Source of the DNA: Candidatus Paceibacterota bacterium
GTDB lineage: Bacteria > Actinomycetota > Actinomycetes > Nanopelagicales > Nanopelagicaceae
Length of the DNA stretch: 64,000 nucleotides
Assembly: GCA_035530615.1 (NCBI GenBank)
Contig: DATKUL010000001.1
Coordinates: 434,001 to 498,000 of the forward strand
Direction: 5' to 3'
Of this stretch, positions 2,717-26,001 are shown one piece after another. Each line of letters opens with the position of its first letter. Within the stretch, counting starts at the first letter, position 1. Position numbers and translations under genes: made by a program. The notes under the pieces were generated by a model that saw nothing but the letters and a program-made list of their open reading frames with translations, made no database searches and had not been told where the DNA came from.

Positions 2717-2721
2717 CGCGC

Positions 2722-4086: not shown

Positions 4087-4110
4087 CTCTTTCCGCTCCA
4101 GGCTTGTGGC

Positions 4111-5555: not shown

Positions 5556-5559
5556 TTCG

Positions 5560-7232: not shown

Positions 7233-7287
7233 TCTGGAAATGATCTTGGTACCCTTCACAGAGCGAGGTCAACGAAGGGGAAATAGT

Positions 7288-8397
7288 GTGAATTCAGAGT
7301 TACCTCTCACAGGAATAAGAGTCCTGGACGCGACATCCAATATTGCTGGACCCTGGGGAGGCACTGTACTTGGGGATCTCGGCGCTGAAGTCCTCAAGAT
7401 TGAGACGCCTAATGGAGATCCTGCCAGATTCATGTCACCAGTAGATGGAGATCGCTCAGCTTATTTCCACATTGTTAATCGCAATAAAGAGGCTATTACC
7501 GTAGATCTCAAAACCCAAGATGGCATTTCAAAACTTCAGGAACTTCTGGATGGGTGTGATGTCTTTCTCACAAATTTCCTTCCAGCTCAGTTGGAGAGAT
7601 TCGGCCTTACGCCTTCAGAGCTCATGAAATCACGCCCACAACTAATTATTGGCAATCTATCTTCATACGGATCTCAAGGTCCGTCATCTTCATGGCCCGG
7701 CTATGACGCCACTTTGCAAGCCCGCACAGGAATTATGAATGTCACGGGCGAACGAAACGGCCCACCGGTTCGTGCCGGGGTCTCAATTCTCGATTTAGGC
7801 GCAGGGACGTGGCTTGCTTTAGGAATCCTCGCCGCAATCGTAAAACGAGATCGCACCGGGATTGGCTCACTTGTAGAAACATCTCTCTACGAGACGGGGG
7901 CGAGTTGGGTCAGCTATCACATTGCTGCTTATGAGTTGACGGGTGATGCATCGATTCGTTCGGGTAGCGGGCATCCGGCATTTTCTCCGTACGGAATTTT
8001 CTCGACCAAGCAGGGCAATATCTGTATCGGGGTTGGCAGCAATGCGATCTTTGCCAAGCTTTGTACAGTCATAGGTCAAGTCGAACTAATCGAAGATCCT
8101 CGATATAGAGAAAATACGAACCGAGTAAAGAACGCCTCTGCACTTAAAGGTGAAATTGAGAAGAGCCTTCTCTCGCACCCGGCCTCTCATTGGGTTGAAG
8201 TTCTCTGCAAATCTGGCGTGCCTGCCGAGGAAGTACTTCAGCCAGAACAGATGCTTACTGATGAACAAGCAAAATCAATGGGCGTCCTCATCGACTATCC
8301 CGACAACTCATCCGCGGTAAAAGTTGTGCCGGGATTGCCGCTTCGTTTTGATGGCGTGCGACCGCAGGTAAGCAAACCCGCTCCACATAGAGGCTAG
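7288..8397 (+). CDS. Class III CoA-transferase (CaiB/BaiF family)
   Basis: Moves CoA between carboxylic acids by the family III mechanism. The enzyme has the usual N-terminal fold (GIRVLDATSNIAGPWGGTVL, LGDLGAEVLKIE) and the catalytic aspartate in RAGVSILDLGAGTWLALG. An ORF opens at 7240, but the GTG at 7288 has GAAGGGGA just upstream and starts at the family's normal position, giving 369 aa. It is transcribed toward, and overlaps by four bases, the CitE-like lyase gene. With methylaspartate ammonia-lyase nearby, mesaconate is a plausible acceptor. Formyl-, succinyl- or other acids cannot be excluded. Confidence 0.85.
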   Translation: MNSELPLTGIRVLDATSNIAGPWGGTVLGDLGAEVLKIETPNGDPARFMSPVDGDRSAYFHIVNRNKEAITVDLKTQDGISKLQELLDGCDVFLTNFLPAQLERFGLTPSELMKSRPQLIIGNLSSYGSQGPSSSWPGYDATLQARTGIMNVTGERNGPPVRAGVSILDLGAGTWLALGILAAIVKRDRTGIGSLVETSLYETGASWVSYHIAAYELTGDASIRSGSGHPAFSPYGIFSTKQGNICIGVGSNAIFAKLCTVIGQVELIEDPRYRENTNRVKNASALKGEIEKSLLSHPASHWVEVLCKSGVPAEEVLQPEQMLTDEQAKSMGVLIDYPDNSSAVKVVPGLPLRFDGVRPQVSKPAPHRG

Positions 8398-9266
8398 ATA
8401 AGTCCCAGGATCTGCCGAGCGCGTTTGAGCATTGCGGTATCAACTAGGTTTGCATCTACAACAAGGGCACCAGAACTTTCGTCTCTCTCATCCCATCGCT
8501 CAATGACTCGTTTTGCCCACTCGCTTTCATCCTCACTTGGTGCGAAACTTTGATCAACTACCTCCAGTTGATTTGGATGAATGCAGAGCTTTCCACCAAA
8601 TCCCATTTGCGAGGCATAGAGAGACCGATCTCTAAGTCCCTCGGTATCTGTTAGCGTGAAGTGTGGGGTGTCGATTGGCGCTCCAAGGCGTGAATGCACA
8701 CTGGCCATGACCAGAGCCGCCATCGCAAGGTCGGTATTGGGACCAGCGGGAGAGTAGGCAATTCGAAGATCTGTATAAAGATCGGCGCCACCGAAGGCAA
8801 GCCGCTGAACTCGGGTAGGTATGCTCGATGAATTGAGTAGTCCTAGTACTCCCGCGCTAGATTCAATAAGACCAATCGTCGGTAGCACTCTTTTGCTTCC
8901 GCTCTCCACCTCCAACTGAGTGAGAGCTTGGTCAGTAGCAATTGCGTTGTCCCCTGGGACAAACTTGGGAAGAACAATTCCATCAACTTCAAGCTCGAGC
9001 GCTTTACGGACGTCTTGGTTAAATTCGTGAGAACCAAATGCGTTCACACGGATAAATATAAGTGGCCCATCTGTAACCCTCAGTGGGAGACCAAGCGCCG
9101 TTCGTGCCACAGACTTATTTTCTGATCGAACCGCATCTTCAAGATCGATAATGACCGCATCGGCCTTTGATTGAAGTGCCTTCGCAATACGATCTGGCTT
9201 ATCTCCAGGAACAAAGAGAAAAGTACGCGCAATTCGAATGCGCCAATTCCTCTCTTCCGTATTCAC
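8394..9266 (-). CDS. HpcH/HpaI-CitE-like CoA-ester lyase
   Basis: A 290-aa TIM-barrel lyase of the citrate lyase beta / malyl-CoA lyase family. It cleaves or condenses hydroxyacyl-CoA esters such as citramalyl-CoA, malyl-CoA or beta-methylmalyl-CoA. Visible motifs are FVPGDKPDRI, IDLEDAV, the arginine in FIRVNAFGS, the metal glutamate in GLIESSAG, the metal aspartate in GGADLYTDL and GKLCIHPNQ near the C-terminus. It starts with GTG, overlapping the M19 dipeptidase stop by one base, and closes the 12-gene peptide operon. Together with the adjacent CoA-transferase it suggests breakdown of a C5 dicarboxylic CoA ester. Confidence 0.85.
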   Translation of the reverse strand: MNTEERNWRIRIARTFLFVPGDKPDRIAKALQSKADAVIIDLEDAVRSENKSVARTALGLPLRVTDGPLIFIRVNAFGSHEFNQDVRKALELEVDGIVLPKFVPGDNAIATDQALTQLEVESGSKRVLPTIGLIESSAGVLGLLNSSSIPTRVQRLAFGGADLYTDLRIAYSPAGPNTDLAMAALVMASVHSRLGAPIDTPHFTLTDTEGLRDRSLYASQMGFGGKLCIHPNQLEVVDQSFAPSEDESEWAKRVIERWDERDESSGALVVDANLVDTAMLKRARQILGLI

Positions 9267-10456
9267 TATTTGACCCAGATCGCCTTCAAGGCTCTCATAA
9301 TATTTCCACCCAGGATGGCAACAATATCTTCGTCAGAGAAGCCGTTCTGTACAAGCCAGCCTGCGATATTCCAAAAATTCTCTGTTGGGTTTTCAAGACC
9401 ATCTACGTACTTCACGCGCTCAAAAGGTGGTGCTTCCCTAAATGCGGTCTTGAGAAGGCCTGAGAAGACTGTATGCAACCCAACATGATCTCCATACAAA
9501 GTATCCGGACCGAAAGCCACGTGCTCGATACCGACGAGATCAATGCAATAGAGAAGATGATCCATCACTGAATCGATCGAGTGCTGAGGATGTGCGTGCG
9601 AAAGAGTCGTATGCGGCGCGGCAGACATGCCGATTACTCCGCCAGTCTCTGCAACTGCCTTAAGGACATCATCGCCTTTCATCCGCTTAATGGGCCAAAT
9701 GGCGCGCGCGCCGGCATGTGTCATGAAAACTGGTGCATCGCTCTCTCTACAGGCGTCAATACCGGTTTGATCTGATGAATGTGAAATATCGACGGCCATT
9801 CCAAGAGCGTTCATCCGCTTGACTGCACGGCGACCAAAGTCGGTAAGTCCGCTATCAGTATTCTCATTGAGTCCACAACCAAGTGCATTGGAGTCGGAAT
9901 AGGCGATTCCAATTTGCCGTATTCCTAATCCATAGAGCACATCAAGGCGGTCAATTTCATTTTCGATAGGAGTCGATGCTTCAAGACCAAAGACGAATCC
10001 GACCTTATTGTTCCTGTGTGCGTAATCAATGTCGGCCATAGTCCGGACAACAGTGACATCATCCTGATGAGCAATATCTGCCAGGCGCATTCCAATATCT
10101 GTAATGATGTCAAGCCAGCGCCAAGGCGCATTCCCTGTTACACATGCTGTGCCATCCATCATATTATCGAAAATCACTGTCATGCCAGATTCTTTTACTC
10201 CAGCAAACGCGGTGTGCTGGCGACCAGTGCGGTTGTACTCCGGGGTGTCCCTCATGTCATCTGGAAAACGAACTGGATGGTCATGCAGGCTGACCGTGAT
10301 GTTCTCTCGCATTAATTTCTCTGCCCGGGTCTGCTCTTCAGCTGTGAGAGCACCTTCATACGGTGCGACACGATTGAATTCAGAGGCCAACTTAATTTTG
10401 TCGAAACGTTCTTCCTCTGGAAGATAGCTATAAGAGGTGTAGGGATCTTTGCTCAT
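9266..10456 (-). CDS. Membrane dipeptidase-type peptidase (M19)
   Basis: A zinc dipeptidase of family M19 (renal dipeptidase/PepM-like), 396 aa from the ATG at 10456, which lies one base past the stop of the M20 gene. The ORF is open further upstream, but that stretch overlaps the neighbour and does not look like the family. The metal-site motifs are LHDHPVRFP, the bridging glutamate in GFVFGLEAST, DISHSSDQTG and MTHAGARA. M19 enzymes accept dipeptides with a D-residue at the C-terminal side. This fits the D-aminopeptidase in the same operon. No signal peptide is seen, so it probably acts in the cytoplasm on imported peptides. Confidence 0.88.
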   Translation of the reverse strand: MSKDPYTSYSYLPEEERFDKIKLASEFNRVAPYEGALTAEEQTRAEKLMRENITVSLHDHPVRFPDDMRDTPEYNRTGRQHTAFAGVKESGMTVIFDNMMDGTACVTGNAPWRWLDIITDIGMRLADIAHQDDVTVVRTMADIDYAHRNNKVGFVFGLEASTPIENEIDRLDVLYGLGIRQIGIAYSDSNALGCGLNENTDSGLTDFGRRAVKRMNALGMAVDISHSSDQTGIDACRESDAPVFMTHAGARAIWPIKRMKGDDVLKAVAETGGVIGMSAAPHTTLSHAHPQHSIDSVMDHLLYCIDLVGIEHVAFGPDTLYGDHVGLHTVFSGLLKTAFREAPPFERVKYVDGLENPTENFWNIAGWLVQNGFSDEDIVAILGGNIMRALKAIWVK

Positions 10457-10457
10457 T

Positions 10458-11822
10458 CTATTTACCCACAATCGCAAGTTTGTGCGGTCCATCCGCAAGG
10501 AAACGCCAGAGAACTTCCCAAGCGTGCATGCCTTCGCGAAGACGCTTGATACGCATAAATTCATTGGGAGCATGGTGTTTTTCATCGGCCGTTGCAAAGG
10601 AAAAGAAGAGGGTCTTTATACCCAGTACATCCTCAAAGAGCGCCGTGGCCGGAAGTGTTCCGCCAATAACCGCGAAAAGAACTGTTTCTCCAGGATAGAC
10701 CGCTTCAAGTGCAGCTGCCGCTGCCCGATTTGCCGGGTGATCAGTAGGAATTGTGTATGCCGGAACCCCACCGTGATCTGCTCGCATCGCAATCTTCACG
10801 CCATCATGTTTAATCTTTTCAATATGCTTCCTGATAGCGTCTAAAACTTTCTCAGGAAACTGTCCTGGCACCAACCGACAAGAGATATGTGCAGTGGCAA
10901 CATGTGGAATGACTGTGTATTTCCCTCCAGCTTGAACGCCGTTTATCTCAAGAGTCGGACGCTCCCATAACCGCTCAATGGTGCTGTAACCCGCCTCTCC
11001 AAATACTTCATCAATTCCTAGCGTCTTCATATATTCCGCGTCACTGAATGCAACCTTTGCAATTTCCGCGCGACGCTCAGAACTCATTTCCGGAATACCT
11101 GCGTAAAAACCTTCAATGGCGACACTGCCATCTCTGTTGTGTAGTCCTGCGAGAATCTCTGAGAGCACGTGAACGGGGTTGGCGACTGTGCCACCATAGC
11201 GTCCCGAATGCAGATCTTCCTTTGCACCAGATACTTCAAGATCAAATGTAACTAGGCCCTTGGATGCGACCGAGAGTGAAGGTTCTGTTGGACGCCACAT
11301 CGCCCCATCGGCAGAAATCACCAGATCTGCTGCAAGTTCGTCCACATGAGCTCGAACATACTCAGGAAGATTTGGGCTACCAATCTCTTCTTCGCCTTCA
11401 AAGAGAAACTTCACGTTGAGGGGAAGTTTTCCTTCTTGCGCAAGAAATGCCTGCGCCACTTTTAGGACGATAAGCACTGGACCCTTATCGTCAGTGACGC
11501 CACGGCCGCGGATTACGTCTCCATCTCGAATGAGCTCGAAGGGTGGCGTATGCCATTCAGCGAGATCGCCCGTTGGCTGCACATCGTAATGTCCATAGAC
11601 CAAGATGGTCGGGGCATCCGGGGCTCCCAGCCACTCGCCACGCACTACTGGATGGCCTGATGTTGGAACTACCCGAGCATTCGCGAAGGAAAGTTGAGCG
11701 GCAAGCCATTCGGCAGCTTTCTGCATCGTCTCGGCTGATGCATCCCGGCTAACAGATGGAATGGCTACATATTGAGAGAGCTCAGCGATGTAATTGTCAT
11801 CGTGTGAATCAAAGGTCAACAT
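10458..11822 (-). CDS. M20-family metallo-dipeptidase
   Basis: A 454-aa dipeptidase/carboxypeptidase of family M20 (CNDP/ArgE-like, long form). The metal-site motifs are ILVYGHYDVQP, GEEEIGSPN with the catalytic glutamate pair, and VISADGAM. The lid-domain histidine is in DLHSGRYGG. It sits between methylaspartate ammonia-lyase (6 bases) and the M19 dipeptidase (1 base) in the peptide operon. It most likely finishes hydrolysis of imported di- and oligopeptides in the cytoplasm. Confidence 0.9.
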   Translation of the reverse strand: MLTFDSHDDNYIAELSQYVAIPSVSRDASAETMQKAAEWLAAQLSFANARVVPTSGHPVVRGEWLGAPDAPTILVYGHYDVQPTGDLAEWHTPPFELIRDGDVIRGRGVTDDKGPVLIVLKVAQAFLAQEGKLPLNVKFLFEGEEEIGSPNLPEYVRAHVDELAADLVISADGAMWRPTEPSLSVASKGLVTFDLEVSGAKEDLHSGRYGGTVANPVHVLSEILAGLHNRDGSVAIEGFYAGIPEMSSERRAEIAKVAFSDAEYMKTLGIDEVFGEAGYSTIERLWERPTLEINGVQAGGKYTVIPHVATAHISCRLVPGQFPEKVLDAIRKHIEKIKHDGVKIAMRADHGGVPAYTIPTDHPANRAAAAALEAVYPGETVLFAVIGGTLPATALFEDVLGIKTLFFSFATADEKHHAPNEFMRIKRLREGMHAWEVLWRFLADGPHKLAIVGK

Positions 11823-11828
11823 CCATAT

Positions 11829-13070
11829 CTACTTTCTGTAGGCAACAAGCGCCGCGGTGCGGGCCATTTCATTTCCAACAATCATCATTCCTTCATCGAC
11901 GCCCATGCCAGGTTTTGCCAAAATTTGAATCGCTCCACATGCCATGGCGATATGGGCGCTTATTTGTGCAGATCGATCTGTCTCGTTGCAGGTACCACCA
12001 CAGTATCCGCCTAGTCCACTCTTGTGAATCAAAAGCAATGCCTCAATAGTGTTGTTGACACCACCGAGATCCGGCATCTTTACGTGAATCACATCCGCCG
12101 CTTCTGCCTCAACGAAGAGTCGAATATCCTCGAGGGTGTTGCACCATTCATCGACAGAGAGTTGAACGTCCGATCCGCGTGCTTTGAGCGCTTCACGGAG
12201 CGCCTTGGAGACCTTTACTTGCCCGTCGACACTCTTGCCATCAATAACATGTTCGACGCGAAGTTGAAACGGCGCAGCAATCTTGCTGACTTCTACAAGA
12301 TAGTCCGCGCATTTTTGAACGTCCGAATCAAATGCTTGACCAATAGTGCCGTATGCATCAAATTGCAGAACCGGGCTGTAATCAGAGTGCTTGCGAATCG
12401 ATAGAATCCGATCTCGCACCCACCCGACATATTCCTTAAAGATCTCACCATTCTTGCCAAGTTTGGTCTCCATATTATTGATGAGACCATGTGGCAAAAC
12501 GCCAGCTTCCTTCAAAATCATCTTGTCTACGTTGGAGTAGCGCTCGTCACCTGACTGTGTGTGCATAGGGACGATGGCAATATCAATACCAGTTTGGTAT
12601 TCATCTTGGATGACTTCTGCCATCGTGATCGAACGATTCTTGGCAACCGCATCCAGAAGAGCTTGAGTAAGGCCGTACCGAATTGCTGCAGAGATGCGCT
12701 TCCCATCAATTTCAAGGTGATCAATTTCTTGCGCCATACTTCTAAAGTCGACGATGGTTCGGCCCTTCAGTATGGGAAGAACATGTTGATTTATTAACGC
12801 TTGCGCTTCTAATGAATTGAAGAGTGGCTCTCTTCCGCCCGCGCCTGAGTATTGGACAACAGCACAATCTCCCTGTGCGATCTCGCCATTATCAAGTACG
12901 AGCAGGACGGAGAGAGATTGACCGGCCTCACGAATTGACGTAAACCCCGGAGTGATTGGCTCTCCCACGTAGTCAAAGCCATCGTGTTCGGCGCCCGCCA
13001 GGATCGCGGCCTGATCGTCAACATAAAAACCGGTAAGTCCTGGAACGCAGAGTAAATCCTTTATCTTCAT
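11829..13070 (-). CDS. mal: Methylaspartate ammonia-lyase
   Basis: Deaminates L-threo-3-methylaspartate to mesaconate and ammonia. It is an enolase-superfamily enzyme with Mg2+ and a catalytic lysine. The protein is 413 aa, the length of the clostridial enzyme. All the known active-site positions fall on the same numbers: H194 (VLPHGLINN), D238 (FDAYGTIG), E273 (RVEHV), D307 (VDEWCNT) and K331 (HVKMPDLGG). The C-terminal block CGGTCNETDRSAQ and the motif KPGMGVDEGMM are also intact. It lies in the peptide operon, 6 bases after the SDR. No glutamate mutase, the usual supplier of 3-methylaspartate in glutamate fermenters, is encoded in the window, so its substrate may come from imported peptides. 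Confidence 0.95.
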   Translation of the reverse strand: MKIKDLLCVPGLTGFYVDDQAAILAGAEHDGFDYVGEPITPGFTSIREAGQSLSVLLVLDNGEIAQGDCAVVQYSGAGGREPLFNSLEAQALINQHVLPILKGRTIVDFRSMAQEIDHLEIDGKRISAAIRYGLTQALLDAVAKNRSITMAEVIQDEYQTGIDIAIVPMHTQSGDERYSNVDKMILKEAGVLPHGLINNMETKLGKNGEIFKEYVGWVRDRILSIRKHSDYSPVLQFDAYGTIGQAFDSDVQKCADYLVEVSKIAAPFQLRVEHVIDGKSVDGQVKVSKALREALKARGSDVQLSVDEWCNTLEDIRLFVEAEAADVIHVKMPDLGGVNNTIEALLLIHKSGLGGYCGGTCNETDRSAQISAHIAMACGAIQILAKPGMGVDEGMMIVGNEMARTAALVAYRK

Positions 13071-13076
13071 TCTCTT

Positions 13077-13889
13077 TTAGTTGCTCGCTTCTCCATAGTT
13101 GAAAGTTGTTACGCATCCACCATCCACGGTAACGATGGATCCGGTCATAAATGAAGCACCAGGAGATGAAAGAAAGACCGCAACATTTCCGACTTCGACC
13201 GGTTGCGCCTGTCGGCCCAACGGCTGCATTCCCGCTGCTTTCTCACGACGATCTGTTGCTGCCTTGAATTCTTCGGCGCTCAAAGTGGGGCCACGACGAC
13301 CAAGGCTGGTGTCAATGTAACCCGGGCAAATGGCGTTCACGCGGATCTGATCTGGCCCGTAATCAACTGCCAACTGACGGGTGAGGTTGACGATCGCACC
13401 TTTGGTCGCACAGTAGGCGGGAGCCTTCGGCGCACCCACTAGACCATATGTTGATGCGATATTCACGATACTGCCACCACCTGCTTTAAGAAAGTACGGG
13501 ATTGTGTACTTAGTCATGAAGAAAGTTCCGACGAGATTGACATCAACAACCCGCGAGAACTCATCTGCATTAACCTCGTGAAGGCGCTTCTGCGCTCCAC
13601 CAATTCCCGCATTGTTGACGAGAATATCGATGGTTCCGAAAGTTGAAACCGTATTTTCAACAATACTCTTCACCTGATCTTCGTTGGCGATATCTGCAAG
13701 TACGAAGATGGCTTCGCCCCCTGCGTCTCTAATCTCCTTGACGGTTCGTTGACCATCTTCAACCAAAGTATCAGAGACACAGACCTTTGCGCCGGCTGCT
13801 GCCATCGCTTTAGCCGTTGCCCGACCGATTCCGTTTCCGGAACCGGTGACGATGGCAACTTTGCCGTCAAGAACTTGTGCAACTCCCAT
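13077..13889 (-). CDS. SDR-family oxidoreductase
   Basis: A 270-aa classical SDR with the cofactor loop TGSGNGIGR at residues 15-23, NNAGIG and the active-site YCATK. The ORF opens at 13901. The ATG at 13889 has GGAG six bases upstream and lies two bases after the M55 gene's stop, so it is the better start. Sequences of this type are usually annotated as 3-oxoacyl-ACP reductase or glucose 1-dehydrogenase-like, but the annotation is generic. In this operon it might act on a hydroxy- or keto-acid derived from the peptides. Confidence 0.86.
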   Translation of the reverse strand: MGVAQVLDGKVAIVTGSGNGIGRATAKAMAAAGAKVCVSDTLVEDGQRTVKEIRDAGGEAIFVLADIANEDQVKSIVENTVSTFGTIDILVNNAGIGGAQKRLHEVNADEFSRVVDVNLVGTFFMTKYTIPYFLKAGGGSIVNIASTYGLVGAPKAPAYCATKGAIVNLTRQLAVDYGPDQIRVNAICPGYIDTSLGRRGPTLSAEEFKAATDRREKAAGMQPLGRQAQPVEVGNVAVFLSSPGASFMTGSIVTVDGGCVTTFNYGEASN

Positions 13890-13891
13890 TC

Positions 13892-14722
13892 TTAGCTCCA
13901 CTCAACGATGCTGCGAGTGAGGATGACAGTTGTAATGAAACGACGGAAGAGCGCCAAAGGATCCTTATCTGTAATCGCAACTTTCTTTGTACCGGTCTTG
14001 ACGTTGCCTGGAATCCAAGCAGCCATATCTGCAAAATCATTGTTATGGAAGGTGATTTCCAGGGTTGCTGGCAGTTCGATGGAAGGCACTGGAATTGATT
14101 TGAGCTCAGCAATAGACGCCTTTGCCTTTTCAAATATCAAGTCGCACGCTTGATTTGGGTGCATGCTGTCGGCTGCAAAGCGAGTAATGCTCTTCTTTAC
14201 AACTGCTGCCTTAACACCAGGTGACCACATCTTGGTCTCAACTTCAGTGATCTCATCACCCGTAACCAGCACAATAGGCACTCCGTAGGACTGCGCAACA
14301 AGAGCATTGATCCCGGCCTCAGAGACGAATTCACCGTTCAGTCGGATATCTGAAATGGCGCGTGGATTGTACGTGTGTGAAAGGACCGACGCTTCGGCGC
14401 TCATCGAACCGTGATATGAGACGAAAAAGATTGCGTCATAAGAACTATCGAGTCCTTGCATCATGTACATCGGCTTGTGCTTACCCGAAAGGTAGCGAGC
14501 ATTCCCTTCAAGTGAATGCGGTCGAAGATTCTGCATCGAAGAGTGGGAGTCATTGACAAGGAATTCATCTGCTCCAGCTGCCATCGCGCCTTTGATACTT
14601 GCATTCACTTCATTTTGAAGAAGTTCGCGGTAGTAGCCGTATTCGGGATTTCCTGGAATGCATTGACTCCAGTCGACAACTCCTGCGGTGCCTTCCATGT
14701 CGGTTGAAATAAAGATCTTCAT
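13892..14722 (-). CDS. D-aminopeptidase, M55 family (DppA-like)
   Basis: A zinc D-aminopeptidase related to Bacillus DppA, which releases N-terminal D-amino acids such as D-Ala from small peptides. From the ATG at 14722 (AAGGAGA upstream, 4-base ATGA overlap with the preceding gene) it is 276 aa. The metal-binding D8 and E10 are in FISTDMEG, and further family motifs are LVNDSHSS and FFVSYHGS. An ORF start at 14839 is open but overlaps the neighbour and is rejected. It is encoded directly after the peptide ABC transporter and the Ntn asparaginase, so its substrates are probably imported peptides with D-residues. Confidence 0.9.
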   Translation of the reverse strand: MKIFISTDMEGTAGVVDWSQCIPGNPEYGYYRELLQNEVNASIKGAMAAGADEFLVNDSHSSMQNLRPHSLEGNARYLSGKHKPMYMMQGLDSSYDAIFFVSYHGSMSAEASVLSHTYNPRAISDIRLNGEFVSEAGINALVAQSYGVPIVLVTGDEITEVETKMWSPGVKAAVVKKSITRFAADSMHPNQACDLIFEKAKASIAELKSIPVPSIELPATLEITFHNNDFADMAAWIPGNVKTGTKKVAITDKDPLALFRRFITTVILTRSIVEWS

Positions 14723-15678
14723 ATCTTTCTCCTTGGTCGAAATTCTGGAGCGGTGGAATGCTCGGTCATGAGCGTGTAAGTCGAACCTTCCATACCGGAA
14801 GCCCCGCCATGTCGGCCATCCTGGGTCAACGAGAGGCAACGAAGTTCAGCACGGAAATTATCAGGTAACGTGCGAGCATCAAGGAGCGCATTGACACAGG
14901 CAGTTTCGGGATCTTGTCCCGTTCGCAAATTTTCAACGATTGTTCGCGCAGTACCAGCTCGTAAAGCCAGTTCGCCACGACCAGTACATGCAGCAGCTCC
15001 GTAGCGGATATCAGAGTAATTACCTGCGCCAGCAATTGCGGAATCCCCTACTCGCCCCGGGTGCTTATAGGGATACCCACTCGTGCTGACGCCGCATACA
15101 AGTTCGCCAGATTGATCAAGGGCGATGATATTGATTGTTCCCCATGGGCCGGCGTGCGGTGCCATGCGCTTTACCAATTCGAGAGAGGCAAGCCGGTATC
15201 GCTCATCACCGCTCGTTGCCTTCGTGTTTTCACCCTCGATAGATTCAGAGTTAGCTGTCTCGAGCTGCTTGAGCCAGAGTGCATTGGATTCAGGAGTGAG
15301 TAAATCTGCGGTAATGAATCCAAGATACTCAGCAAATGCTTCAGCTCCCTCACCAACAAGAAGTGAATGCTGTGGCAGCTGTTCCATTACTTTGCGAGCA
15401 ATTGAAATTGGATTTGGGTAATTCTTAACGGCCGCGACTGCTCCAAAGGCTCGCGTTGATCCAACCATGATGGATGCGTCAAGTTCGACGATGCCGCGCG
15501 CGTTTGGGAGCCCGCCCGTACCGACATAGTGATCGGCTAAATTATCTTCACATAATCTAAGTCCACGTTCGACGGCATCGAGCGCGCTTCCGCCGGTTCG
15601 AAGTATTTCCATTGCTGCCGGTATTCCAGCTTCACTGCGCTCGCTTCCAATAATGATTGGACTAAATTTCGCCGCCAA
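14719..15678 (-). CDS. Ntn-hydrolase asparaginase (aspartylglucosaminidase-like)
   Basis: An N-terminal-nucleophile hydrolase of the glycosylasparaginase/isoaspartyl-peptidase family, 319 aa. The precursor is expected to cut itself before T181 (WGTINIIALD), giving alpha and beta subunits. The substrate-binding block CGVSTSGYPYKHPGRVGDS and the glycine stretch AIAGAGNYSD are conserved. Most enzymes with this last block cleave N4-(GlcNAc)-asparagine; others remove beta-aspartyl residues from isopeptides. The start is a TTG with AAGGGG six bases upstream. It lies between the ABC transporter genes and the D-aminopeptidase, which favours a peptide substrate. Confidence 0.86.
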   Translation of the reverse strand: MAAKFSPIIIGSERSEAGIPAAMEILRTGGSALDAVERGLRLCEDNLADHYVGTGGLPNARGIVELDASIMVGSTRAFGAVAAVKNYPNPISIARKVMEQLPQHSLLVGEGAEAFAEYLGFITADLLTPESNALWLKQLETANSESIEGENTKATSGDERYRLASLELVKRMAPHAGPWGTINIIALDQSGELVCGVSTSGYPYKHPGRVGDSAIAGAGNYSDIRYGAAACTGRGELALRAGTARTIVENLRTGQDPETACVNALLDARTLPDNFRAELRCLSLTQDGRHGGASGMEGSTYTLMTEHSTAPEFRPRRKI

Positions 15679-15706
15679 GGCACACCCCTTTTTATATAAC
15701 TACGTG

Positions 15707-16672
15707 TCAAACCAGGAGGCAGGCTGCCTGATGGGTTCCTTCCACTAGATTCAAACTTGGATCAGTTGTTGCACATTCAGCAATCGCAACGGGGCAACGG
15801 CCACGGAAGCGGCATCCAACCATTGCGCTCTTAATGGACTGTAGTTCGCCATTTGGAGCAGATGAAATCTTTGAGCCCGTGGTCATCTTTGGTACAGAAC
15901 TCAAGAGAAGCTTTGTATAGGGGTGTGAAGGATTATTAAAGACCTCTTCGGTCGGCCCAACTTCGACAATGCGTCCTAAGTACATAACCGCGATGCGATC
16001 GCTAACTTGACGTACAACGGCAATGTTGTGCGAAATAAAGAGCATGGTCAGTCCGAGGTCCCGCTTTAGATCCATCAGGAGGTTTACAACAGATGCTTGA
16101 ACGGATACATCCAGCGCTGAAACAACTTCGTCTGCGATCAACACCTCAGGTTCTAGGGCAAGTGCCCGAGCGATACCAATGCGTTGACGTTGCCCACCGG
16201 AAAATTGGCGCGGGTACGACTGGAGTGCATCCATCGGCAACCCGACGAGGGCAAGCAGTTCGAGAGAGCGCGCTTCAACTTTCTCTTTGGGTACAAGATT
16301 ATGGAAGGAGAGCGCTTCTCGAAGAACTTCGCCTACGGTCAAACGTGGATTAAGCGATGAGAATGGGTCCTGAAAGACCATCTGCACGCTACGGCGCTCA
16401 TCAAGAGTGCGCTCCGCAGTCACTTTTTTTCCCTTGAGCGAGATAAAGCCCTCCGAAGCGGTATAAAGACCAACGAGTGTCCGACCCAGAGTTGATTTAC
16501 CACACCCGGATTCACCAACGAGGCCAAGAGTCTCACCTGCTCTGAGATCGAGCGTTACGCCATCAATTGCCGGAACATTAAAAATTTCTTTCTTGCGCAA
16601 GCGATCAACAATTGATTGGCGCTTTGCAAAGTGCTTTACAACATTCTCGGCTGAAAGTACGGCTTGACTCAT
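15707..16672 (-). CDS. Peptide ABC transporter ATP-binding protein (DppF/OppF-like)
   Basis: One of two ATPases of a peptide importer, 321 aa from the ATG at 16672, which overlaps the stop of the first ATPase gene by four bases (ATGA). Walker A is GESGCGKST, the signature is LSGGQRQRI in the form [15 protein letters not shown], and Walker B is EVLIADEV. The C-terminal oligopeptide-transporter extension is present with the cysteines of [15 protein letters not shown] longer ORF up to 16825 is a read-through into the neighbour. It energises the permeases encoded just upstream. Confidence 0.93.
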
Positions 16673-17679
16673 TCTGTTACACCACTTCCTGACGCAGCCG
16701 TAGCCCATTCTTTGTGGTCTGTAGATTTGAAACACGCGCTCTGTGAATTCTCGATAGGAGCGAGATTCGGTTCTGCAGAAAGACACTGCTCTTCTACAGC
16801 GAAGCAACGTGGGGCAAATGGACAACCCAATACCGGCTTGGTGAGGTTTGGGGCTTCACCGGAGATCGTGAAGAGACGGTGCACTGCCATATCTGGATCT
16901 GGGGCGGCTTTGAGAAGAGAAAATGTATACGGATGTGTTGGAATTTTAAAGGTTCCTTGCACATTCCCCGATTCAACGAAACGTCCCGCGTACATAACTT
17001 TGATGTCGTCGCACAATTCGTTTACTACAGCAAGATCGTGAGTAACAAAAACTATTCCAAGGCCGGAATTATGGCGAAGTTCATTCAGGAGTCGAAGGAC
17101 CTGTGCCTGGATTGTCACATCGAGGGCGGTAGTTGGCTCATCGCAGAAGAGAATCTTAGGACTTCCAGAAAGTGCAATTGCGATTGCAATACGCTGGCGC
17201 AAACCACCAGAGAGTTGGTGCGGATAAAGATCGTACCGAGACTCCCCATCGGTAATTCCTACTCGTTCCATCAATGAGAGTGCGATCTGCTTCGACTCTT
17301 CTTTACTCTTGCCAAGACGATAGCGTGGAACTTCTGAGACTTGCTCCCCGACCTTGATAACTGGGTTAAGGGCGGCAATTGCATCTTGGAAAATCATTCC
17401 GGTGTTATGCGAAAGCAGCGCCCGCCGGCTCTTATGGTCAAGCGTTGAAACATCCTTGCCTTCGACGAAAATCGAGCCCGAGGAAACGCGGGCATTGCTT
17501 GGTAAGAGTCCAAGAATTGCCTTGAGAGTGATTGATTTGCCGCTACCCGACTCGCCAACGATACCGATGGAATCCGCTGAATCCACATCAAATGAGACTC
17601 CACGAATCGCCTGGAGCAGACCGCGGTCAGTCTTGATCTCGACCGAAAGGTCCCTGACGGAAATGAGCGGAGTACTCAT
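16669..17679 (-). CDS. Peptide ABC transporter ATP-binding protein (DppD/OppD-like)
   Basis: The other ATPase of the peptide importer, 336 aa. Walker A is GESGSGKSI, the signature is LSGGLRQRIAIAIAL, and Walker B is ILFCDEPTTALD. The carboxy-terminal oligopeptide extension has the cysteine pattern CPFAPRCFAVEEQC. Its ATG follows the stop codon of the permease gene with no gap, and its end overlaps the partner ATPase by four bases. It functions at the inner face of the membrane as a heterodimer with the DppF-like protein. Confidence 0.93.
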   Translation of the reverse strand: MSTPLISVRDLSVEIKTDRGLLQAIRGVSFDVDSADSIGIVGESGSGKSITLKAILGLLPSNARVSSGSIFVEGKDVSTLDHKSRRALLSHNTGMIFQDAIAALNPVIKVGEQVSEVPRYRLGKSKEESKQIALSLMERVGITDGESRYDLYPHQLSGGLRQRIAIAIALSGSPKILFCDEPTTALDVTIQAQVLRLLNELRHNSGLGIVFVTHDLAVVNELCDDIKVMYAGRFVESGNVQGTFKIPTHPYTFSLLKAAPDPDMAVHRLFTISGEAPNLTKPVLGCPFAPRCFAVEEQCLSAEPNLAPIENSQSACFKSTDHKEWATAASGSGVTE

Positions 17680-18477
17680 TTAGCGCTCCAGACGTGCGAC
17701 AAGTCCATCGCCAATGAGTGAGAGTGAGAATCCGACGTAAACGACCATAAGTCCTGGAAGTGTGGAGAGCCACCATTGATTCATGATGTAGGACTGACCT
17801 TCTTGAATCATTGAACCCCACTCGGCAGTTGGCACTGGAACACCCAGTCCGAGATAGCCGAGAGAGACGATCGCCAAGATGCTCAGGACGATATCGCTCA
17901 TCGCAAAAACAATTGATTGGGAAATCACATTCGGCAGGAGATGACGTCGAAGAATGCGAAAGGTCGGAAGGCCCGTGAGCCGGGCAGCATGCACGTAATC
18001 TTGCTCTTTTGCAACAAGCACGTTTGCTCGCACAATTCGAGAGTAGGCAACCCACCCCACCAAAGTAATTGCCACGATAATGCTTTTTATGCCTGGCCCG
18101 AAGACGAAGATAAGTGCAATCGCCAGAACATAAAATGGGAAAGCAATCACGGTATCTACAATGCGCATGACCACTGAGTCAGTTGCACCACCTAGCCATC
18201 CGGTTAGCAGACCAAGCGAAACGCCAATGAGGTAAGGGAGAATGACCGCCAGAAGCCCAATTGTCAGGTCAACCCGAGCTCCGTAAATGAGGCGAGTGAA
18301 GACATCGCGACCCAGTGGGTCCGTGCCGAGCCAGTGATGAGAGCCAGGTCCTAATAGGGTGTTCAATAAATCTTGTTCGTTCGGATCGTATGGGGAAATC
18401 AGTGGTGCGATAATTGCAACAAGTACGAGAAACCCGAGAAGTCCTGTACCAATATATAAAGTCTTTTTGGACTTCAC
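17680..18477 (-). CDS. Peptide ABC transporter permease (DppC/OppC-like)
   Basis: A 265-aa membrane subunit of the peptide importer, with about six hydrophobic segments. The family N-terminal periplasmic signature is LGTDPLGRDVFTRLIYGARV and the EAA-like coupling loop is HAARLTGLPTFRILRRHLLP. It starts with GTG overlapping the DppB stop by four bases (GTGA). It forms the translocation pore with the DppB-like subunit. Confidence 0.92.
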   Translation of the reverse strand: MKSKKTLYIGTGLLGFLVLVAIIAPLISPYDPNEQDLLNTLLGPGSHHWLGTDPLGRDVFTRLIYGARVDLTIGLLAVILPYLIGVSLGLLTGWLGGATDSVVMRIVDTVIAFPFYVLAIALIFVFGPGIKSIIVAITLVGWVAYSRIVRANVLVAKEQDYVHAARLTGLPTFRILRRHLLPNVISQSIVFAMSDIVLSILAIVSLGYLGLGVPVPTAEWGSMIQEGQSYIMNQWWLSTLPGLMVVYVGFSLSLIGDGLVARLER

Positions 18478-19415
18478 TTCACCACCACCCGAGGGTCAAG
18501 AGCGGCATGGATCAGGTCAGTAACTAAATTGACGATGACAACAACAAAGGCAAAGTACAACGTCACTCCTTGCACGATCGGATAGTCACGACGTGAAATG
18601 GCATCAATCATGAGGGACCCGGTTCCGGCGATCGCAAAGACGCGTTCTACCACAACCATCGAACCAACGAGGTAGGCAATATTAATACCGAGAACTGTTA
18701 CTGATGCGATCAAAGAATTTCGAAGCACGTGAACGCGCGTAATGCGTGCAGTTGAGATTCCTTTTGCACGCGCAGTTAAAACGTAATCCGAGTCAAGAAT
18801 TTCCAACATACTCGCGCGCAAACTGCGAATAAGAATTGGAGATAACAGGATCGCAATAGTCAGTGCTGGAAGGAAAATCGAATGAAGGTGTTCCGGGAAA
18901 GTATTACCAAAACCGCCTACGGGAAAGAGGGGATACTTGAGCCCGAGAAATAGAATCAGCATCACACCAACCCAGACTTGCGGCATTCCCAGACCGATGA
19001 TTGGAATGGCACGAACAAGTTGATCACGTAGCGCGCCGCGCTTGGAAGCCGCAAGAATGGAGAGTGGGAGAGCAATCACAATGGAGAGAATGACCCCTCC
19101 GGTCAATAGCATTCCGGTCTCAGGGAGCCGTCCCAAAATAAGGCTTGTGACCGATTGCTTATTGTAAAAACTGGTGCCCAGTGAGCCGTGCAAGAGATCC
19201 CAGACAAAATTTAGGTACTGCACGAACATCGAACGATCGAGGCCGAGTTGGTGTCGGACGATCAGAGCCTTCGCAGGAGTGGAATTCTGTCCAAGAATGA
19301 CATCTGCGGGATCCCCAGGAATCGCGTGAACAATGAGAAATACGGCGATAGAAATACCGAAGAGAACGGGCAACATCTGAAGGAGTCTTTTACCTACGTA
19401 GGCTAAGTAACTCAA
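18474..19415 (-). CDS. Peptide ABC transporter permease (DppB/OppB-like)
   Basis: A 313-aa membrane subunit with the classic beginning YVGKRLLQMLPVLFGISIAVF and the loop LARAKGIS-type segment LTARAKGISTARITRVHVLRN. About six transmembrane segments are visible. The start is a TTG at 19415 with GGGTGA upstream. It follows the binding-protein gene by 89 bases, in which no strong terminator is visible, so it is part of the same operon. Confidence 0.92.
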   Translation of the reverse strand: MSYLAYVGKRLLQMLPVLFGISIAVFLIVHAIPGDPADVILGQNSTPAKALIVRHQLGLDRSMFVQYLNFVWDLLHGSLGTSFYNKQSVTSLILGRLPETGMLLTGGVILSIVIALPLSILAASKRGALRDQLVRAIPIIGLGMPQVWVGVMLILFLGLKYPLFPVGGFGNTFPEHLHSIFLPALTIAILLSPILIRSLRASMLEILDSDYVLTARAKGISTARITRVHVLRNSLIASVTVLGINIAYLVGSMVVVERVFAIAGTGSLMIDAISRRDYPIVQGVTLYFAFVVVIVNLVTDLIHAALDPRVVVK

Positions 19416-19504
19416 TGCGATATCACCCGTTCTCTTCGTTTGGCAATTGTACTTACAAACATTACAGCTGTTTTGATTTTTGCATAAATCCGTCTAGAAG
19501 AGGA

Positions 19505-21055
19505 TTAGTTCTTCTTAACGTTTTTCAGGTAGTAGCTGTAGAGCGGGTTCACGGTGAATCCCGTGATGTTGCTACGCCAGGCGTAGGTATAAGGAGGGTT
19601 GAGAGTAAACGCCATAAACGCGTCTTCCGCTGTCTGCTTCTGTACAAATGAGTAAGCAGCCTGACGAACTTTAGGATCAACATTTGTCTGACCCTTCTTG
19701 ATCGCAGCAATTACTTTCTTGTTGACATAACCCGTGTAGTAAGAGTTTGTTCCACCTTCTGGTGCCAAACCAAATGTCAACAACTCGTCCGGGTCAACGA
19801 TATCCATCGTCCAGGCCGTTACAACCATTTGGTAGTTCATGGCCTTTTGGGTGGCGCGAGATACAGTTGGCTCTTGTGCCGTGATTGTCATTGTGATGCC
19901 AATCTTCTTCAAAGCAGCCTGCACAATTGAAGCTGTTAGCTCATGTGTTCTGTTACCACCGCGGATCAAGAGGTCAAGTTTTAGGCCCTTCTTGAACTTA
20001 CTCTGTGCAAGTTCGGCGGCCGCCTTCTTGAGATCATATTGCTGGCCTGGTGTCGTCTTATCGTAAAAGTTAACACTTGGCGCAAGGAATGAGTTTGAAA
20101 TTGTTGCGTTACCTGAGTACAGCACTCTGTTTAGCGCTGCACGATCGATTGCATATGAGATTGCCCGGCGAACATGTACGTCAGCTAGGGCAGGAACCTT
20201 CTGGTTAAAGGCAATGTAGTTTGAAGCTGCCGCAGAGAAAATGCCGACTTTGATCCCTGGCGAAGCCTTGAGAGATGCGACCGTATTAGATGGCGGCTCT
20301 TCGTTGATATCAGCTTGTCCACCCTTGAGCATGAACTCACGAGTGTTGTCATCTGCAACATATTTAAAGGTTACCGAGTTGAGGTATGGCTTACCTGGCT
20401 GCCAGTAATTCTTGTTAGCAACCAACTTGACTTCGGTTCCTGGAGTCCAGCGATCAAGCATGAATGGACCGGTAGCAATTGGATTCTTGAAGAATTCTGC
20501 TTCGGTCTTTCCGTCCAAATTCGCCTTCAGGATCGAATTGCTAAAGCAAGCAAGGTCCGCCAGCAACGGAGCCCAAGGAAATTTTGTCTTGATAATAACC
20601 GTGTCAGCTGACGGCGCAGTGATGGTTTCGATAGCCGTGTTGAGGAAGCCCCAACCGTCTCCACCTGATGCGCGTTCAAGGGAGAACTTGACGTCCGCGG
20701 AAGTCATCGGTGTTCCGTCAGTGAACTTAACATCAGTACGTAGTTTGATGGTCCAAGTTAGTCCATCTTTTGCCACAGTTCCGCTCTTTGCCAGCAATGG
20801 CGTAACGCCTTTACCGTCTTGCTTGTTGTTAAAAAGTGGTTCGTACATTTGCTGTTGGATGAAGATTGAGTCGTTCTGCGGAAATAAAGGATCCAAGGTT
20901 GCCAAATCTTGGTTTCGAACCAAGACCAAGTCACCCTTAGGTGTTGGGTTTGCTGCATTTGCCGTAATCGGTAATACAACTGTTGTTGCAACCATAAAGG
21001 CCGCAAGAAGAGCAACCAACATTTTATTCTTTGGTGCCATATCGATAGTTCCCAT
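19505..21055 (-). CDS. Peptide ABC transporter substrate-binding protein (SBP family 5)
   Basis: The extracytoplasmic receptor of the importer, 516 aa. Its N-terminus is a plain signal peptide (basic MAPKNK, hydrophobic core, ending near ITANAA). No lipobox cysteine is present, which is unusual for a Gram-positive binding protein. Family 5 features follow: LATLDPLFPQND, the repeated MTSADVKFSLERA, and FMLKGGQADINEEP. It is the first gene of the 12-gene minus-strand operon. The start could also be the ATG at 21040. Ligand class is peptide or a similar compound, judging from the peptidases downstream. Confidence 0.9.
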   Translation of the reverse strand: MGTIDMAPKNKMLVALLAAFMVATTVVLPITANAANPTPKGDLVLVRNQDLATLDPLFPQNDSIFIQQQMYEPLFNNKQDGKGVTPLLAKSGTVAKDGLTWTIKLRTDVKFTDGTPMTSADVKFSLERASGGDGWGFLNTAIETITAPSADTVIIKTKFPWAPLLADLACFSNSILKANLDGKTEAEFFKNPIATGPFMLDRWTPGTEVKLVANKNYWQPGKPYLNSVTFKYVADDNTREFMLKGGQADINEEPPSNTVASLKASPGIKVGIFSAAASNYIAFNQKVPALADVHVRRAISYAIDRAALNRVLYSGNATISNSFLAPSVNFYDKTTPGQQYDLKKAAAELAQSKFKKGLKLDLLIRGGNRTHELTASIVQAALKKIGITMTITAQEPTVSRATQKAMNYQMVVTAWTMDIVDPDELLTFGLAPEGGTNSYYTGYVNKKVIAAIKKGQTNVDPKVRQAAYSFVQKQTAEDAFMAFTLNPPYTYAWRSNITGFTVNPLYSYYLKNVKKN

Positions 21056-21264
21056 CTCGTGTGGTGAATGAGTCCGCGACCCAAATGTCTGAAATTTTTA
21101 AATCTCGGAACTGCGTCTTGAAGCGGTATGAGCGTAGGGTAAATTTTCAAAATTCACACCTTTTTTGGCCAGGAAATAATAAAGATTCCATAACACTCGA
21201 GCCTCTCAAAAAATGCTAGCACTCGCTCGTTATTCACAGCCGTGTAGATGAGCCGTACGTGAGT

Positions 21265-21969
21265 TTAGAAAAGTGAGTGACCGCCGTCAATCGACAGACA
21301 CTGACCGGTGACCCAGTCGGAAGCTTCAGATGCAAAGAAGGAAACACCATTTGCGATGTCTTCGGCTTTCCCTAATCGACGAGTGGCAATACCACTGAGT
21401 AACTTTGCTTGACCTTCAGAGCCATAACTTTCCCACTGAGCGATCGTTGAAGGATTCGAAAGAACAAATCCAGGAGCGATGCAGTTGACAGTGATGTTGT
21501 ACTGGCCAAGTTCGTAAGCCATCTGACGAGTAAAACCAATCTGAGCAGCCTTTGATGACGCGTAGGCCTGAATACCAGTCAAACTCACGCTGCGACCAGC
21601 TCCTGAGGAGATATTGACGATACGTCCCCACTTATTGGCTTTCATTCCAGTAACGACGGCACGCGTGCAGAGAAAAGTTGTCTGCATATTGGCGTCAAAA
21701 ATCTGTTGCCAGGCATCATCGGTGACTTCATCCAATGGTTTATGTGTCTGCCCTACGACTCCACCAGCACAGTTGACCAGAATATCAACCTGCCCAATTT
21801 TTTCGAAATAAGCTTTTACTTCAGCTGAATTTGAGAGATCTGCTTGATCACGATCAACTCCATGGACTGTATGGCCGCTTGCTCTAAGAGAATCAATTAT
21901 CGCACTGCCCATGCCATGTGTGGCGCCCGTCACAACTGCAATTCGCGGTTCAATCACGCCGCTATACAA
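21265..21969 (-). CDS. SDR-family oxidoreductase
   Basis: A 234-aa SDR with the cofactor loop VTGATHGMGS, the motif NCAGGV in place of NNAG, and the active site YASSK. The start is a TTG at 21969. A GTG at 21957 is also possible, and neither has a strong ribosome-binding site. It lies 209 bases upstream of the peptide-binding protein gene on the same strand and is divergent from the reductase-amidase fusion gene. The substrate is unknown. Confidence 0.84.
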   Translation of the reverse strand: MYSGVIEPRIAVVTGATHGMGSAIIDSLRASGHTVHGVDRDQADLSNSAEVKAYFEKIGQVDILVNCAGGVVGQTHKPLDEVTDDAWQQIFDANMQTTFLCTRAVVTGMKANKWGRIVNISSGAGRSVSLTGIQAYASSKAAQIGFTRQMAYELGQYNITVNCIAPGFVLSNPSTIAQWESYGSEGQAKLLSGIATRRLGKAEDIANGVSFFASEASDWVTGQCLSIDGGHSLF

Positions 21970-21986
21970 GCACTAATTCTCTCATT

Positions 21987-22008: not shown

Positions 22009-22056
22009 GCACTGCATAATCTCAATACGTGAACATAAGTGAGACAGGTGGAAGAA

Positions 22057-24207: not shown

Positions 24208-24219
24208 CTCTCAAAGGCT

Positions 24220-25140: not shown

Positions 25141-26001
25141 CTAGGCCTGCTTTACTGCCAGATGAGGAAGGTAATCAGCGATGAATTTCCGCTGTACCTC
25201 TTGGAACAAGTCGTACTCTTCGAACTGTGGTGAGTGACCCGACTTTTCAAAGATGACCAAACGTGAGTTTGGAATACCATCAGCAATAGTTTGCGCGGAA
25301 GAGACCGGCGTAACCCAGTCTGTCCGACCCACGGTGACCAGGGTTGGAGCTTTGATCGTTCCGAGAACGGGCTTCAAATCGTAGTTAGGCTTGTTATGAG
25401 TAAAACAGTAGTTGTGTGCCTCATGGTGATAAGTACCGGCCTCAACCCGGGCGGCTGACTTCTCTGCGTCGTAATGGAAGTCATAGAGTGGAATCAGTTC
25501 TGCCCAACAAGCCTTCAGATCTGCGTCATCTCGTATATGGCCAGTCCAGTAACGATTGAAGTTATCCCAGTTGATTTCCACGCGATTCTGGTTCTTTGCA
25601 TTCTCTTCAAGGGTTGTAAAGTTATTGTTGTCAGCCGAGGTATCGCGAAGCAAGACGGCCTCAGTGTGCTCTGGATAGCGGACCGCGTACTCAAGTGAGA
25701 TAAATCCGCCATACGAGCCGCCCGCTACAACAATCTTCTCAGCGCCAATCCACTTACGAAGACCATCGACGTCCGCTGCCCACTGTTCATGAGAATAAGG
25801 TCCAACAATTTCACTATGACCGCAACCACGCGCATCAAAGACGATTACTTGGAAAATATCTTGCAACGGACCGTATGTAGCTTTGGGTTCGTTCAGGTTC
25901 CCGATTCCACCACCACCGTGATGCGCGATAAGAACTGGTTTTCCTTTTCCCTCACCCAAGACTTCAACATTGAGTTTGGCACCGTTAATTTCCACAATCA
26001 T
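25141..26001 (-). CDS. Alpha/beta hydrolase (proline iminopeptidase-like)
   Basis: A 286-aa hydrolase with the nucleophile elbow GGSYGG, the acid residue in VGRTDWVTP and the histidine in KSGHSPQFEE. The oxyanion-hole region is AHHGGGGIG. The start has GGGGGA a few bases upstream. It is first in a two-gene unit with the aspartoacylase-like enzyme, just downstream of tRNA-Lys. Relatives are peptidases of family S33 or amide/ester hydrolases. With the neighbouring deacylase it suggests degradation of small amides or peptides. Confidence 0.84.
   Translation of the reverse strand: MIVEINGAKLNVEVLGEGKGKPVLIAHHGGGGIGNLNEPKATYGPLQDIFQVIVFDARGCGHSEIVGPYSHEQWAADVDGLRKWIGAEKIVVAGGSYGGFISLEYAVRYPEHTEAVLLRDTSADNNNFTTLEENAKNQNRVEINWDNFNRYWTGHIRDDADLKACWAELIPLYDFHYDAEKSAARVEAGTYHHEAHNYCFTHNKPNYDLKPVLGTIKAPTLVTVGRTDWVTPVSSAQTIADGIPNSRLVIFEKSGHSPQFEEYDLFQEVQRKFIADYLPHLAVKQA

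What the first reader, a model, noticed from the sequence alone, without database searches (positions are those of the whole stretch)
8394..21055. Twelve-gene peptide operon with enzymes for D-residues and isopeptide bonds
One transcription unit joins a peptide ABC importer with an M55 D-aminopeptidase, an M19 dipeptidase (tolerates D-residues), an isoaspartyl/glycosylasparaginase-type Ntn hydrolase, an M20 peptidase and methylaspartate ammonia-lyase. The set would suit peptides that contain D-amino acids, isoaspartyl links and 3-methylaspartate. Cyanobacterial peptides such as microcystins have all three, although their methylaspartate is the D-erythro form and would need epimerisation. Cell-wall peptides are the simpler alternative.
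Basis: inference. Interest (0 to 1): 0.8.

Follow-up and report, generated by a model that had tools for sequence, protein, structure and literature searches.

The report
Peptide-eating operon with mutase-free methylaspartase
A freshwater actinobacterium carries a gene block that appears to import unusual peptides, cut them, and burn a rare amino acid (3-methylaspartate or a close relative) that the cell seems unable to make; the same block recurs in soil actinobacteria and has apparently not been described.

Summary
Twelve minus-strand genes at 8394-21055 encode an Opp-type importer, an Ntn hydrolase, an M55 D-aminopeptidase, an SDR, methylaspartate ammonia-lyase (MAL), M20 and M19-like peptidases and a CitE/RipC-like lyase. 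The functional block is larger, about 7240-26001. With the lyase it forms a plausible mesaconate-to-pyruvate-plus-acetyl-CoA route.

The genome has no detectable glutamate mutase. Ten anaerobes whose MAL served as controls all have it. Of 39 MAL-bearing genomes from the window's side of the MAL tree, 38 lack it and one has only a distant homologue. These MALs form their own branch (100/100), keep the catalytic residues and share a signature beside the Mg/C4-carboxylate site (H274-V306-H329 instead of G-A-Q). Within its family MAL is rare (8/151) and always occurs with M55 (p about 1e-9).

A peptide-derived, methylaspartate-like residue as MAL substrate is the best reading, but the substrate is unproven and may not be 3-methylaspartate itself. 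Microcystin is not specifically supported: the cassette also occurs in soil actinomycetes, and no epimerase was found. Murein recycling does not explain MAL. New variant of a known kind.

The parts
7240..8397 (+). Class III CoA-transferase, convergent with the operon (stop codons overlap); proposed to activate citramalate or mesaconate
   Evidence: PF02515 372 bits; NCBIfam succinate-glutarate 238 bits and succinyl-CoA:mesaconate 203 bits, both below cut-off; nearest solved chain succinate-hydroxymethylglutarate CoA-transferase 9br7; conserved in L005, L009, L011
8394..9266 (-). CitE/RipC-like acyl-CoA lyase; proposed citramalyl-CoA lyase
   Evidence: RipC 148 bits and citE 129 bits, both below cut-off; HpcH_HpaI; solved acyl-CoA lyase beta chains
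9266..10456 (-). M19-like dipeptidase with H-D-H in place of H-x-D
   Evidence: PF01244 216 bits; motif H86-D87-H88 invariant in 19 rows; relatives 2i5g and 3id7
10458..11822 (-). M20 dipeptidase
   Evidence: PRK08201 447.8 bits, cut-off 441; nearest solved Sso-CP2, CNDP2, DUG1
11829..13070 (-). Methylaspartate ammonia-lyase of the mutase-free clade
   Evidence: TIGR01502 539 bits; gapless alignment to 1kcz; signature H274-V306-H329, plus H170
13077..13901 (-). Short-chain dehydrogenase (SDRa), role unknown
13892..14722 (-). M55 D-aminopeptidase; DppA metal and catalytic residues kept
   Evidence: PF04951 313 bits; alignment to DppA 1hi9; invariant residues in 17 rows
14719..15678 (-). Ntn hydrolase of glycosylasparaginase type (nucleophile T181; R209 and D212 for free alpha-carboxyl and alpha-amino of Asp)
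   Evidence: PF01112 212 bits; alignment to glycosylasparaginase 1p4k; invariance in 15 rows
15707..16672 (-). OppF-type ATPase
   Evidence: start refined
16669..17679 (-). OppD-type ATPase
17680..18477 (-). OppC-type permease
18474..19415 (-). OppB-type permease
19505..21055 (-). OppA-type family 5 substrate-binding protein
   Evidence: PF00496 314 bits; nearest solved AapF 7kz8
21265..21969 (-). Short-chain dehydrogenase (SDRb), conserved cassette member
   Evidence: synteny
22039..24207 (+). PanE-like reductase fused to amidase-signature amidase, divergent, conserved cassette member
   Evidence: PF02558 and PF01425; full-length fusion in L024, L029, L038, L056
24220..25140 (-). AstE/AspA-DoeB-like deacylase, conserved cassette member
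   Evidence: PF24827; DoeB 77 bits, below cut-off; synteny
25141..26001 (-). Alpha/beta hydrolase, conserved cassette member
   Evidence: PF00561; synteny

Best explanation
This is a catabolic island for imported peptides or conjugates that contain a 3-methylaspartate-type residue together with D-residues and/or beta-aspartyl (iso) bonds. OppABCDF takes up the peptide. The M55 D-aminopeptidase, the Ntn hydrolase, the M20 dipeptidase, the M19-like enzyme and the neighbouring AstE-like deacylase and amidase dismantle it. MAL deaminates the released 3-methylaspartate (or a close 3-substituted aspartate) to mesaconate. A class I fumarase elsewhere in the genome may hydrate mesaconate to citramalate. 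The CoA-transferase and the CitE/RipC-like lyase then give acetyl-CoA and pyruvate. Relatives use a linked CoA-transferase plus a RipB/Ich-like hydratase on mesaconyl-CoA. The substrate is taken to be exogenous because no glutamate mutase is present. Shown by computation: gene content, conservation, absence of detectable mutase, retained catalytic residues. Inferred: the peptide substrate, every reaction, and the order of steps.
For: No glutamate mutase E in the complete genome by TIGR01503 or PF06368. The same model (TIGR01503) detects it in all 10 anaerobe controls and in L082; 38 of 39 genomes of the mutase-free MAL clade have none, and Nonomuraea jiangxiensis has only a 164-bit distant homologue. 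In 395 genomes of the class, 10 have MAL and 18 have a distant mutase homologue, with no overlap. The two MAL clades separate at 100/100. In the family, all 8 MAL genomes have M55 against 7 of 143 others (Fisher p 1.2e-9). The Opp-Ntn-M55-MAL-M20-M19 order or content is conserved in Streptosporangiaceae, Pseudonocardiales and Actinoallomurus. Mesaconate-side genes: CoA-transferase resembling mesaconate and glutarate CoA-transferases, RipB/Ich-like hydratase in relatives, RipC/CitE-like lyase, class I fumarase. Class I fumarases act on mesaconate (PMC4682846). MAL catalytic residues are kept, roles as described in PMC7241714.
Against: The clade signature next to the Mg ligands and C4-carboxylate (HVH instead of GAQ), and F170H in the window's close relatives, allow a changed substrate. 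In a second context (B) the same MAL clade sits with amide and ureide hydrolases instead of peptidases, so peptides are not its only source. In three family genomes the Opp-Ntn-M55 block occurs without MAL, and in three MAL genomes the two blocks are not adjacent. The CoA enzymes score below their curated equivalog cut-offs. Many comparison genomes are MAGs. No expression or biochemical data exist here.
Confidence: 0.5

Rival explanations
1. MAL of this clade has shifted to another substrate (another 3-substituted or N-modified aspartate, possibly released from a cyclic ureide, imide or amide in context B and from a peptide in context A). The downstream CoA-transferase and lyase would handle the corresponding unsaturated diacid.
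For: Positions 274, 306 and 329 are near-perfect clade markers (GAQ 38/39 against HVH 38/41 readable rows). Gln329 contacts the C4 carboxylate and stabilises the enolate in known MAL (PMC7241714). Context B contains biuret hydrolase/RutB-like and PuuE-like hydrolases and a gamma-glutamylputrescine-synthetase-like ligase.
Against: All catalytic residues and Leu384, which packs on the substrate methyl group, are kept. The linked hydratase and lyase resemble enzymes for exactly the C5 acids itaconyl/mesaconyl-CoA and citramalyl-CoA.
Confidence: 0.27
2. Generic scavenging of cell-wall (murein) or damaged-protein peptides with D- and isoaspartyl residues, as in the Bacillus dpp/ykf region; MAL is a passenger or has a side role.
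For: M55 beside a dipeptide importer is the Bacillus DppA arrangement (1hi9). In three family genomes Opp-Ntn-M55 was found without MAL.
Against: No LD-carboxypeptidase, NlpC/P60 or Ala-Glu epimerase was found among the annotated ORFs. MAL never occurs without M55 in the sampled family and sits inside the block in unrelated families.
Confidence: 0.13
3. A microcystin- or cyanopeptide-degrading operon that releases D-erythro-methylaspartate.
For: Freshwater host lineage. Microcystin combines D-residues, iso-linkage and methylaspartate (own knowledge), and C2 epimerisation of the D-erythro form would give the MAL substrate.
Against: The same cassette occurs in Streptosporangiaceae and Pseudonocardiales. 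No racemase or epimerase was found among the annotated genes. It is rare in the family (8/151). The library held no paper linking methylaspartate, microcystin degradation and peptidases. The mlr genes were not searched genome-wide.
Confidence: 0.05

Closest known systems
Methylaspartate pathway of glutamate fermentation (Clostridium; MAL 1kcz)
   Same: Same MAL fold, catalytic residues and presumed mesaconate product; citrate-lyase-like gene nearby in many anaerobe loci
   Different: No glutamate mutase; different MAL clade with HVH signature; linked to a peptide importer and peptidases; CoA-ester cleavage route
Haloarchaeal methylaspartate cycle (Mal, Mct, Mch; PMC5592240)
   Same: MAL, class III CoA-transferase and, in relatives, a MaoC-type hydratase
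   Different: No mutase; lyase closer to RipC/CitE than to the haloarchaeal beta-methylmalyl-CoA lyase; catabolic context, not acetate assimilation
Itaconate/mesaconate degradation (RipABC; mesaconate use in Burkholderia xenovorans)
   Same: CoA-transferase, Ich/RipB-like hydratase in relatives, RipC/CitE-like lyase; class I fumarase available as mesaconase
   Different: Fed by an ammonia-lyase and a peptide importer; all scores below equivalog cut-offs
Bacillus subtilis dpp operon (DppA D-aminopeptidase with dipeptide ABC importer)
   Same: M55 enzyme with a dipeptide/oligopeptide ABC importer
   Different: Adds Ntn hydrolase, MAL and CoA enzymes; M55 scores 194 bits against the DppA equivalog cut-off of 430

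Membership tests
Methylaspartate ammonia-lyase (EC 4.3.1.2) | Curated model over cut-off and catalytic residues Q73, Q172, H194, D238, E273, D307, K331 | tested here: met
   539 bits against cut-off 286; residues conserved
Methylaspartate ammonia-lyase (EC 4.3.1.2) | Gln329 contacting the C4 carboxylate (feature of characterised members, not a curated criterion) | tested here: not met
   His in the window and in all readable mutase-free relatives; Gln in 38 of 39 mutase-linked ones
Methylaspartate ammonia-lyase (EC 4.3.1.2) | Activity on L-threo-3-methylaspartate | not testable with these tools
   needs enzyme assay
Glutamate-fermenting methylaspartate pathway | Glutamate mutase (GlmE) | tested here: not met
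   No TIGR01503 or PF06368 match in the complete genome; TIGR01503 works in 10 anaerobe controls
Haloarchaeal methylaspartate cycle | Glutamate mutase plus MAL plus Mct plus Mch | tested here: not met
   No mutase; Mct-like only distantly (203 bits against cut-off 700); no homologue of the relatives' hydratase in the genome
Itaconate/mesaconate degradation (RipABC type) | RipC/CitE-like citramalyl-CoA lyase over cut-off | tested here: inconclusive
   RipC 148 bits, cut-off 375; best NCBIfam model but sub-threshold
M55 D-aminopeptidase (DppA) | Pfam M55 and DppA metal/catalytic residues D8, E10, H60, H104, H115, E133 | tested here: met
   313 bits; residues aligned and invariant
M55 D-aminopeptidase (DppA) | Curated DppA equivalog cut-off | tested here: not met
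   194 bits against 430
Glycosylasparaginase/isoaspartyl Ntn hydrolase | Nucleophile Thr and Arg/Asp binding the free Asp amino and carboxyl groups | tested here: met
   T181, R209, D212 aligned with glycosylasparaginase and invariant in 15 rows
M19 membrane dipeptidase | First metal motif H-x-D | tested here: not met
   H-D-H, invariant in 19 rows; rest of the Pfam match 216 bits
mlr microcystin-degradation system | mlrA, mlrB, mlrC | not tested

The most novel reading that the evidence does not exclude
A distinct, glutamate-mutase-free clade of methylaspartate ammonia-lyases marks an undescribed catabolic route in aerobic actinobacteria (with members in Dormibacterota, Acidobacteriota and a Gammaproteobacterium). 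It would degrade environmental 3-methylaspartate, or a similar branched aspartate, from peptides (context A) and from a second amide- or ureide-type source (context B), via mesaconate and citramalyl-CoA.
Probability: 0.5. Interest if true: 0.72.

Novelty: new variant of a known kind. Interest (0 to 1): 0.57.

Why it matters
Methylaspartate ammonia-lyase is known from glutamate fermentation and the haloarchaeal methylaspartate cycle, both of which make 3-methylaspartate with glutamate mutase. A clade without the mutase, tied to peptide uptake and D-/iso-peptide hydrolases, implies that branched aspartates exist in soil and lake water in amounts worth scavenging. It provides a genetic handle to find the source, for example non-ribosomal peptides. 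It also offers a natural set of MAL active-site variants (H274/V306/H329) for biocatalysis.

Tried and rejected
A RipB-like hydratase from Cryobacterium found no match in the own genome. One MaoC-domain protein exists there but is unlinked, so I prefer the fumarase route for the window organism. Literature searches for methylaspartate with microcystin degradation, with D-aminopeptidase, or with Streptomyces and mesaconate returned nothing. The promoter/terminator scan was no better than shuffled sequence. The column tally counted the window in the anaerobe group by a sorting slip; one search is the corrected count. I rejected a biosynthetic role for MAL (no use for methylaspartate visible nearby) and a simple murein-recycling reading.
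Full report
What is there. Twelve minus-strand genes at 8394-21055 were confirmed. In transcription order they are OppA, OppB, OppC, OppD, OppF, an Ntn hydrolase of glycosylasparaginase type, an M55 D-aminopeptidase, a short-chain dehydrogenase, methylaspartate ammonia-lyase (MAL), an M20 dipeptidase, an M19-like enzyme and a CitE/RipC-like lyase. Start codons of M19, M55 and OppF were corrected. Overlapping or very short junctions make co-transcription likely but do not show it. A class III CoA-transferase (7240-8397) converges on the lyase gene, their stop codons overlapping. Upstream lie a second dehydrogenase, a divergent PanE-amidase fusion, an AstE-like deacylase and an alpha/beta hydrolase, all of which recur with the operon elsewhere.

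Is it more than chance? A scan of 84,980 species genomes with MAL returned 80 loci with flanks. Mapping the window proteins on them shows the same order (Opp, Ntn, M55, SDR, MAL, M20, M19, lyase) in other Nanopelagicaceae. Much the same content appears in Planotetraspora, Nonomuraea, Microbispora, Streptosporangium, Actinoallomurus and Pseudonocardiales; in several of these the CoA-transferase and a RipB/Ich-like hydratase follow MAL directly, together with creatininase-like and DUF885 genes. In a sample of 151 family genomes MAL is present in 8 and M55 in 15; all 8 MAL genomes have M55 (Fisher p 1.2e-9; relatedness is not corrected for). In three MAL genomes the peptidase block and the MAL block are not adjacent (two on separate contigs, one about 16 kb apart), and in three others the Opp-Ntn-M55 block was found without MAL. 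The island is thus modular.

No glutamate mutase. In both known MAL pathways the substrate is made from glutamate by glutamate mutase. The window genome (100% complete by estimate) has no match to TIGR01503 or PF06368. As a control, the TIGR01503 search over 50 MAL genomes found the mutase in all 10 anaerobes and in L082, but not in 38 of 39 genomes of the window-like group; Nonomuraea jiangxiensis has one distant match of 164 bits, below the cut-off. In 395 genomes of the class, the 10 with MAL and the 18 with a distant mutase homologue do not overlap.

A separate MAL clade. An IQ-TREE of 82 sequences splits mutase-linked from mutase-free MALs with 100/100 support. Catalytic and metal residues are conserved throughout. 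Positions 274, 306 and 329 read G-A-Q in 38 of 39 mutase-linked and H-V-H in 38 of 41 readable mutase-free sequences (one search miscounted the window). Residues 274 and 306 adjoin Mg ligands; Gln329 binds the C4 carboxylate and stabilises the enolate (PMC7241714). The window and four close relatives also have His for Phe170, one of the hydrophobic pocket residues. The substrate may therefore be a relative of 3-methylaspartate.

The peptidases. M55 keeps the DppA residues but scores below the DppA equivalog cut-off. The Ntn hydrolase keeps the nucleophile and the Arg/Asp pair that bind a free alpha-carboxylate and alpha-amine, as expected for an enzyme that frees aspartyl residues linked through their beta-carboxyl (residue roles from own knowledge of glycosylasparaginase). 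M20 is nearest to ordinary cytosolic dipeptidases. The M19-like enzyme has H-D-H where M19 dipeptidases have H-x-D, invariant in 19 rows, so its activity is uncertain.

After MAL. Mesaconate could be hydrated by the class I fumarase found elsewhere in the genome, as described for class I fumarases (PMC4682846), activated by the CoA-transferase (nearest solved: succinate-hydroxymethylglutarate CoA-transferase) and cleaved by the RipC/CitE-like lyase to acetyl-CoA and pyruvate. Relatives carry a linked RipB/Ich-like hydratase, which the window genome lacks by sequence search. All these CoA-enzyme assignments are below curated cut-offs.

A second context. In Microbacteriaceae, Acidimicrobiia, Dormibacterota, Nocardioides and others, the same MAL clade sits with a biuret hydrolase/RutB-like amidase and, in many, an amino-acid permease or LIV-type ABC importer, an SDR, and a PuuE-like hydrolase or a gamma-glutamylputrescine-synthetase-like ligase. 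That cassette lies at 96-7125 in the window, next to the peptide island, and the two contexts also meet in L012. MAL therefore serves at least two sources.

Judgement. The import-digest-deaminate reading is the best supported (0.5), followed by a shifted MAL substrate (0.27). Microcystin specificity is not supported (0.05). Murein recycling alone leaves MAL unexplained (0.13).

Noticed in passing
window 96-7125: A second conserved cassette (GntR-FCD regulator, SDR, amidohydrolase, gamma-glutamylputrescine-synthetase-like ligase, SDR, biuret hydrolase/RutB-like amidase, amino-acid permease) that neighbours MAL in Microbacteriaceae and others; substrate unknown.
   Followed up: partly
window 22039-24207: A PanE-like reductase fused to an amidase-signature amidase; in some other carriers only one half is matched near the cassette, suggesting linked steps.
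   Followed up: partly
window 9266-10456: M19-like subfamily with H-D-H in place of the H-x-D metal motif, invariant in 19 rows.
   Followed up: partly
L024:13834-14544 and L024:17867-19597: Creatininase-like and DUF885-like genes inside the same cassette in Streptosporangiaceae, absent next to MAL in the window.
   Followed up: no
window 40515-42038: Ice-binding-like domain protein with an Ig-like domain in a freshwater actinobacterium.
   Followed up: no
L015:8526-9281: EgtC-like class II glutamine amidotransferase beside a gamma-glutamyl ligase in the MAL-linked second cassette, hinting at a gamma-glutamylated intermediate.
   Followed up: no
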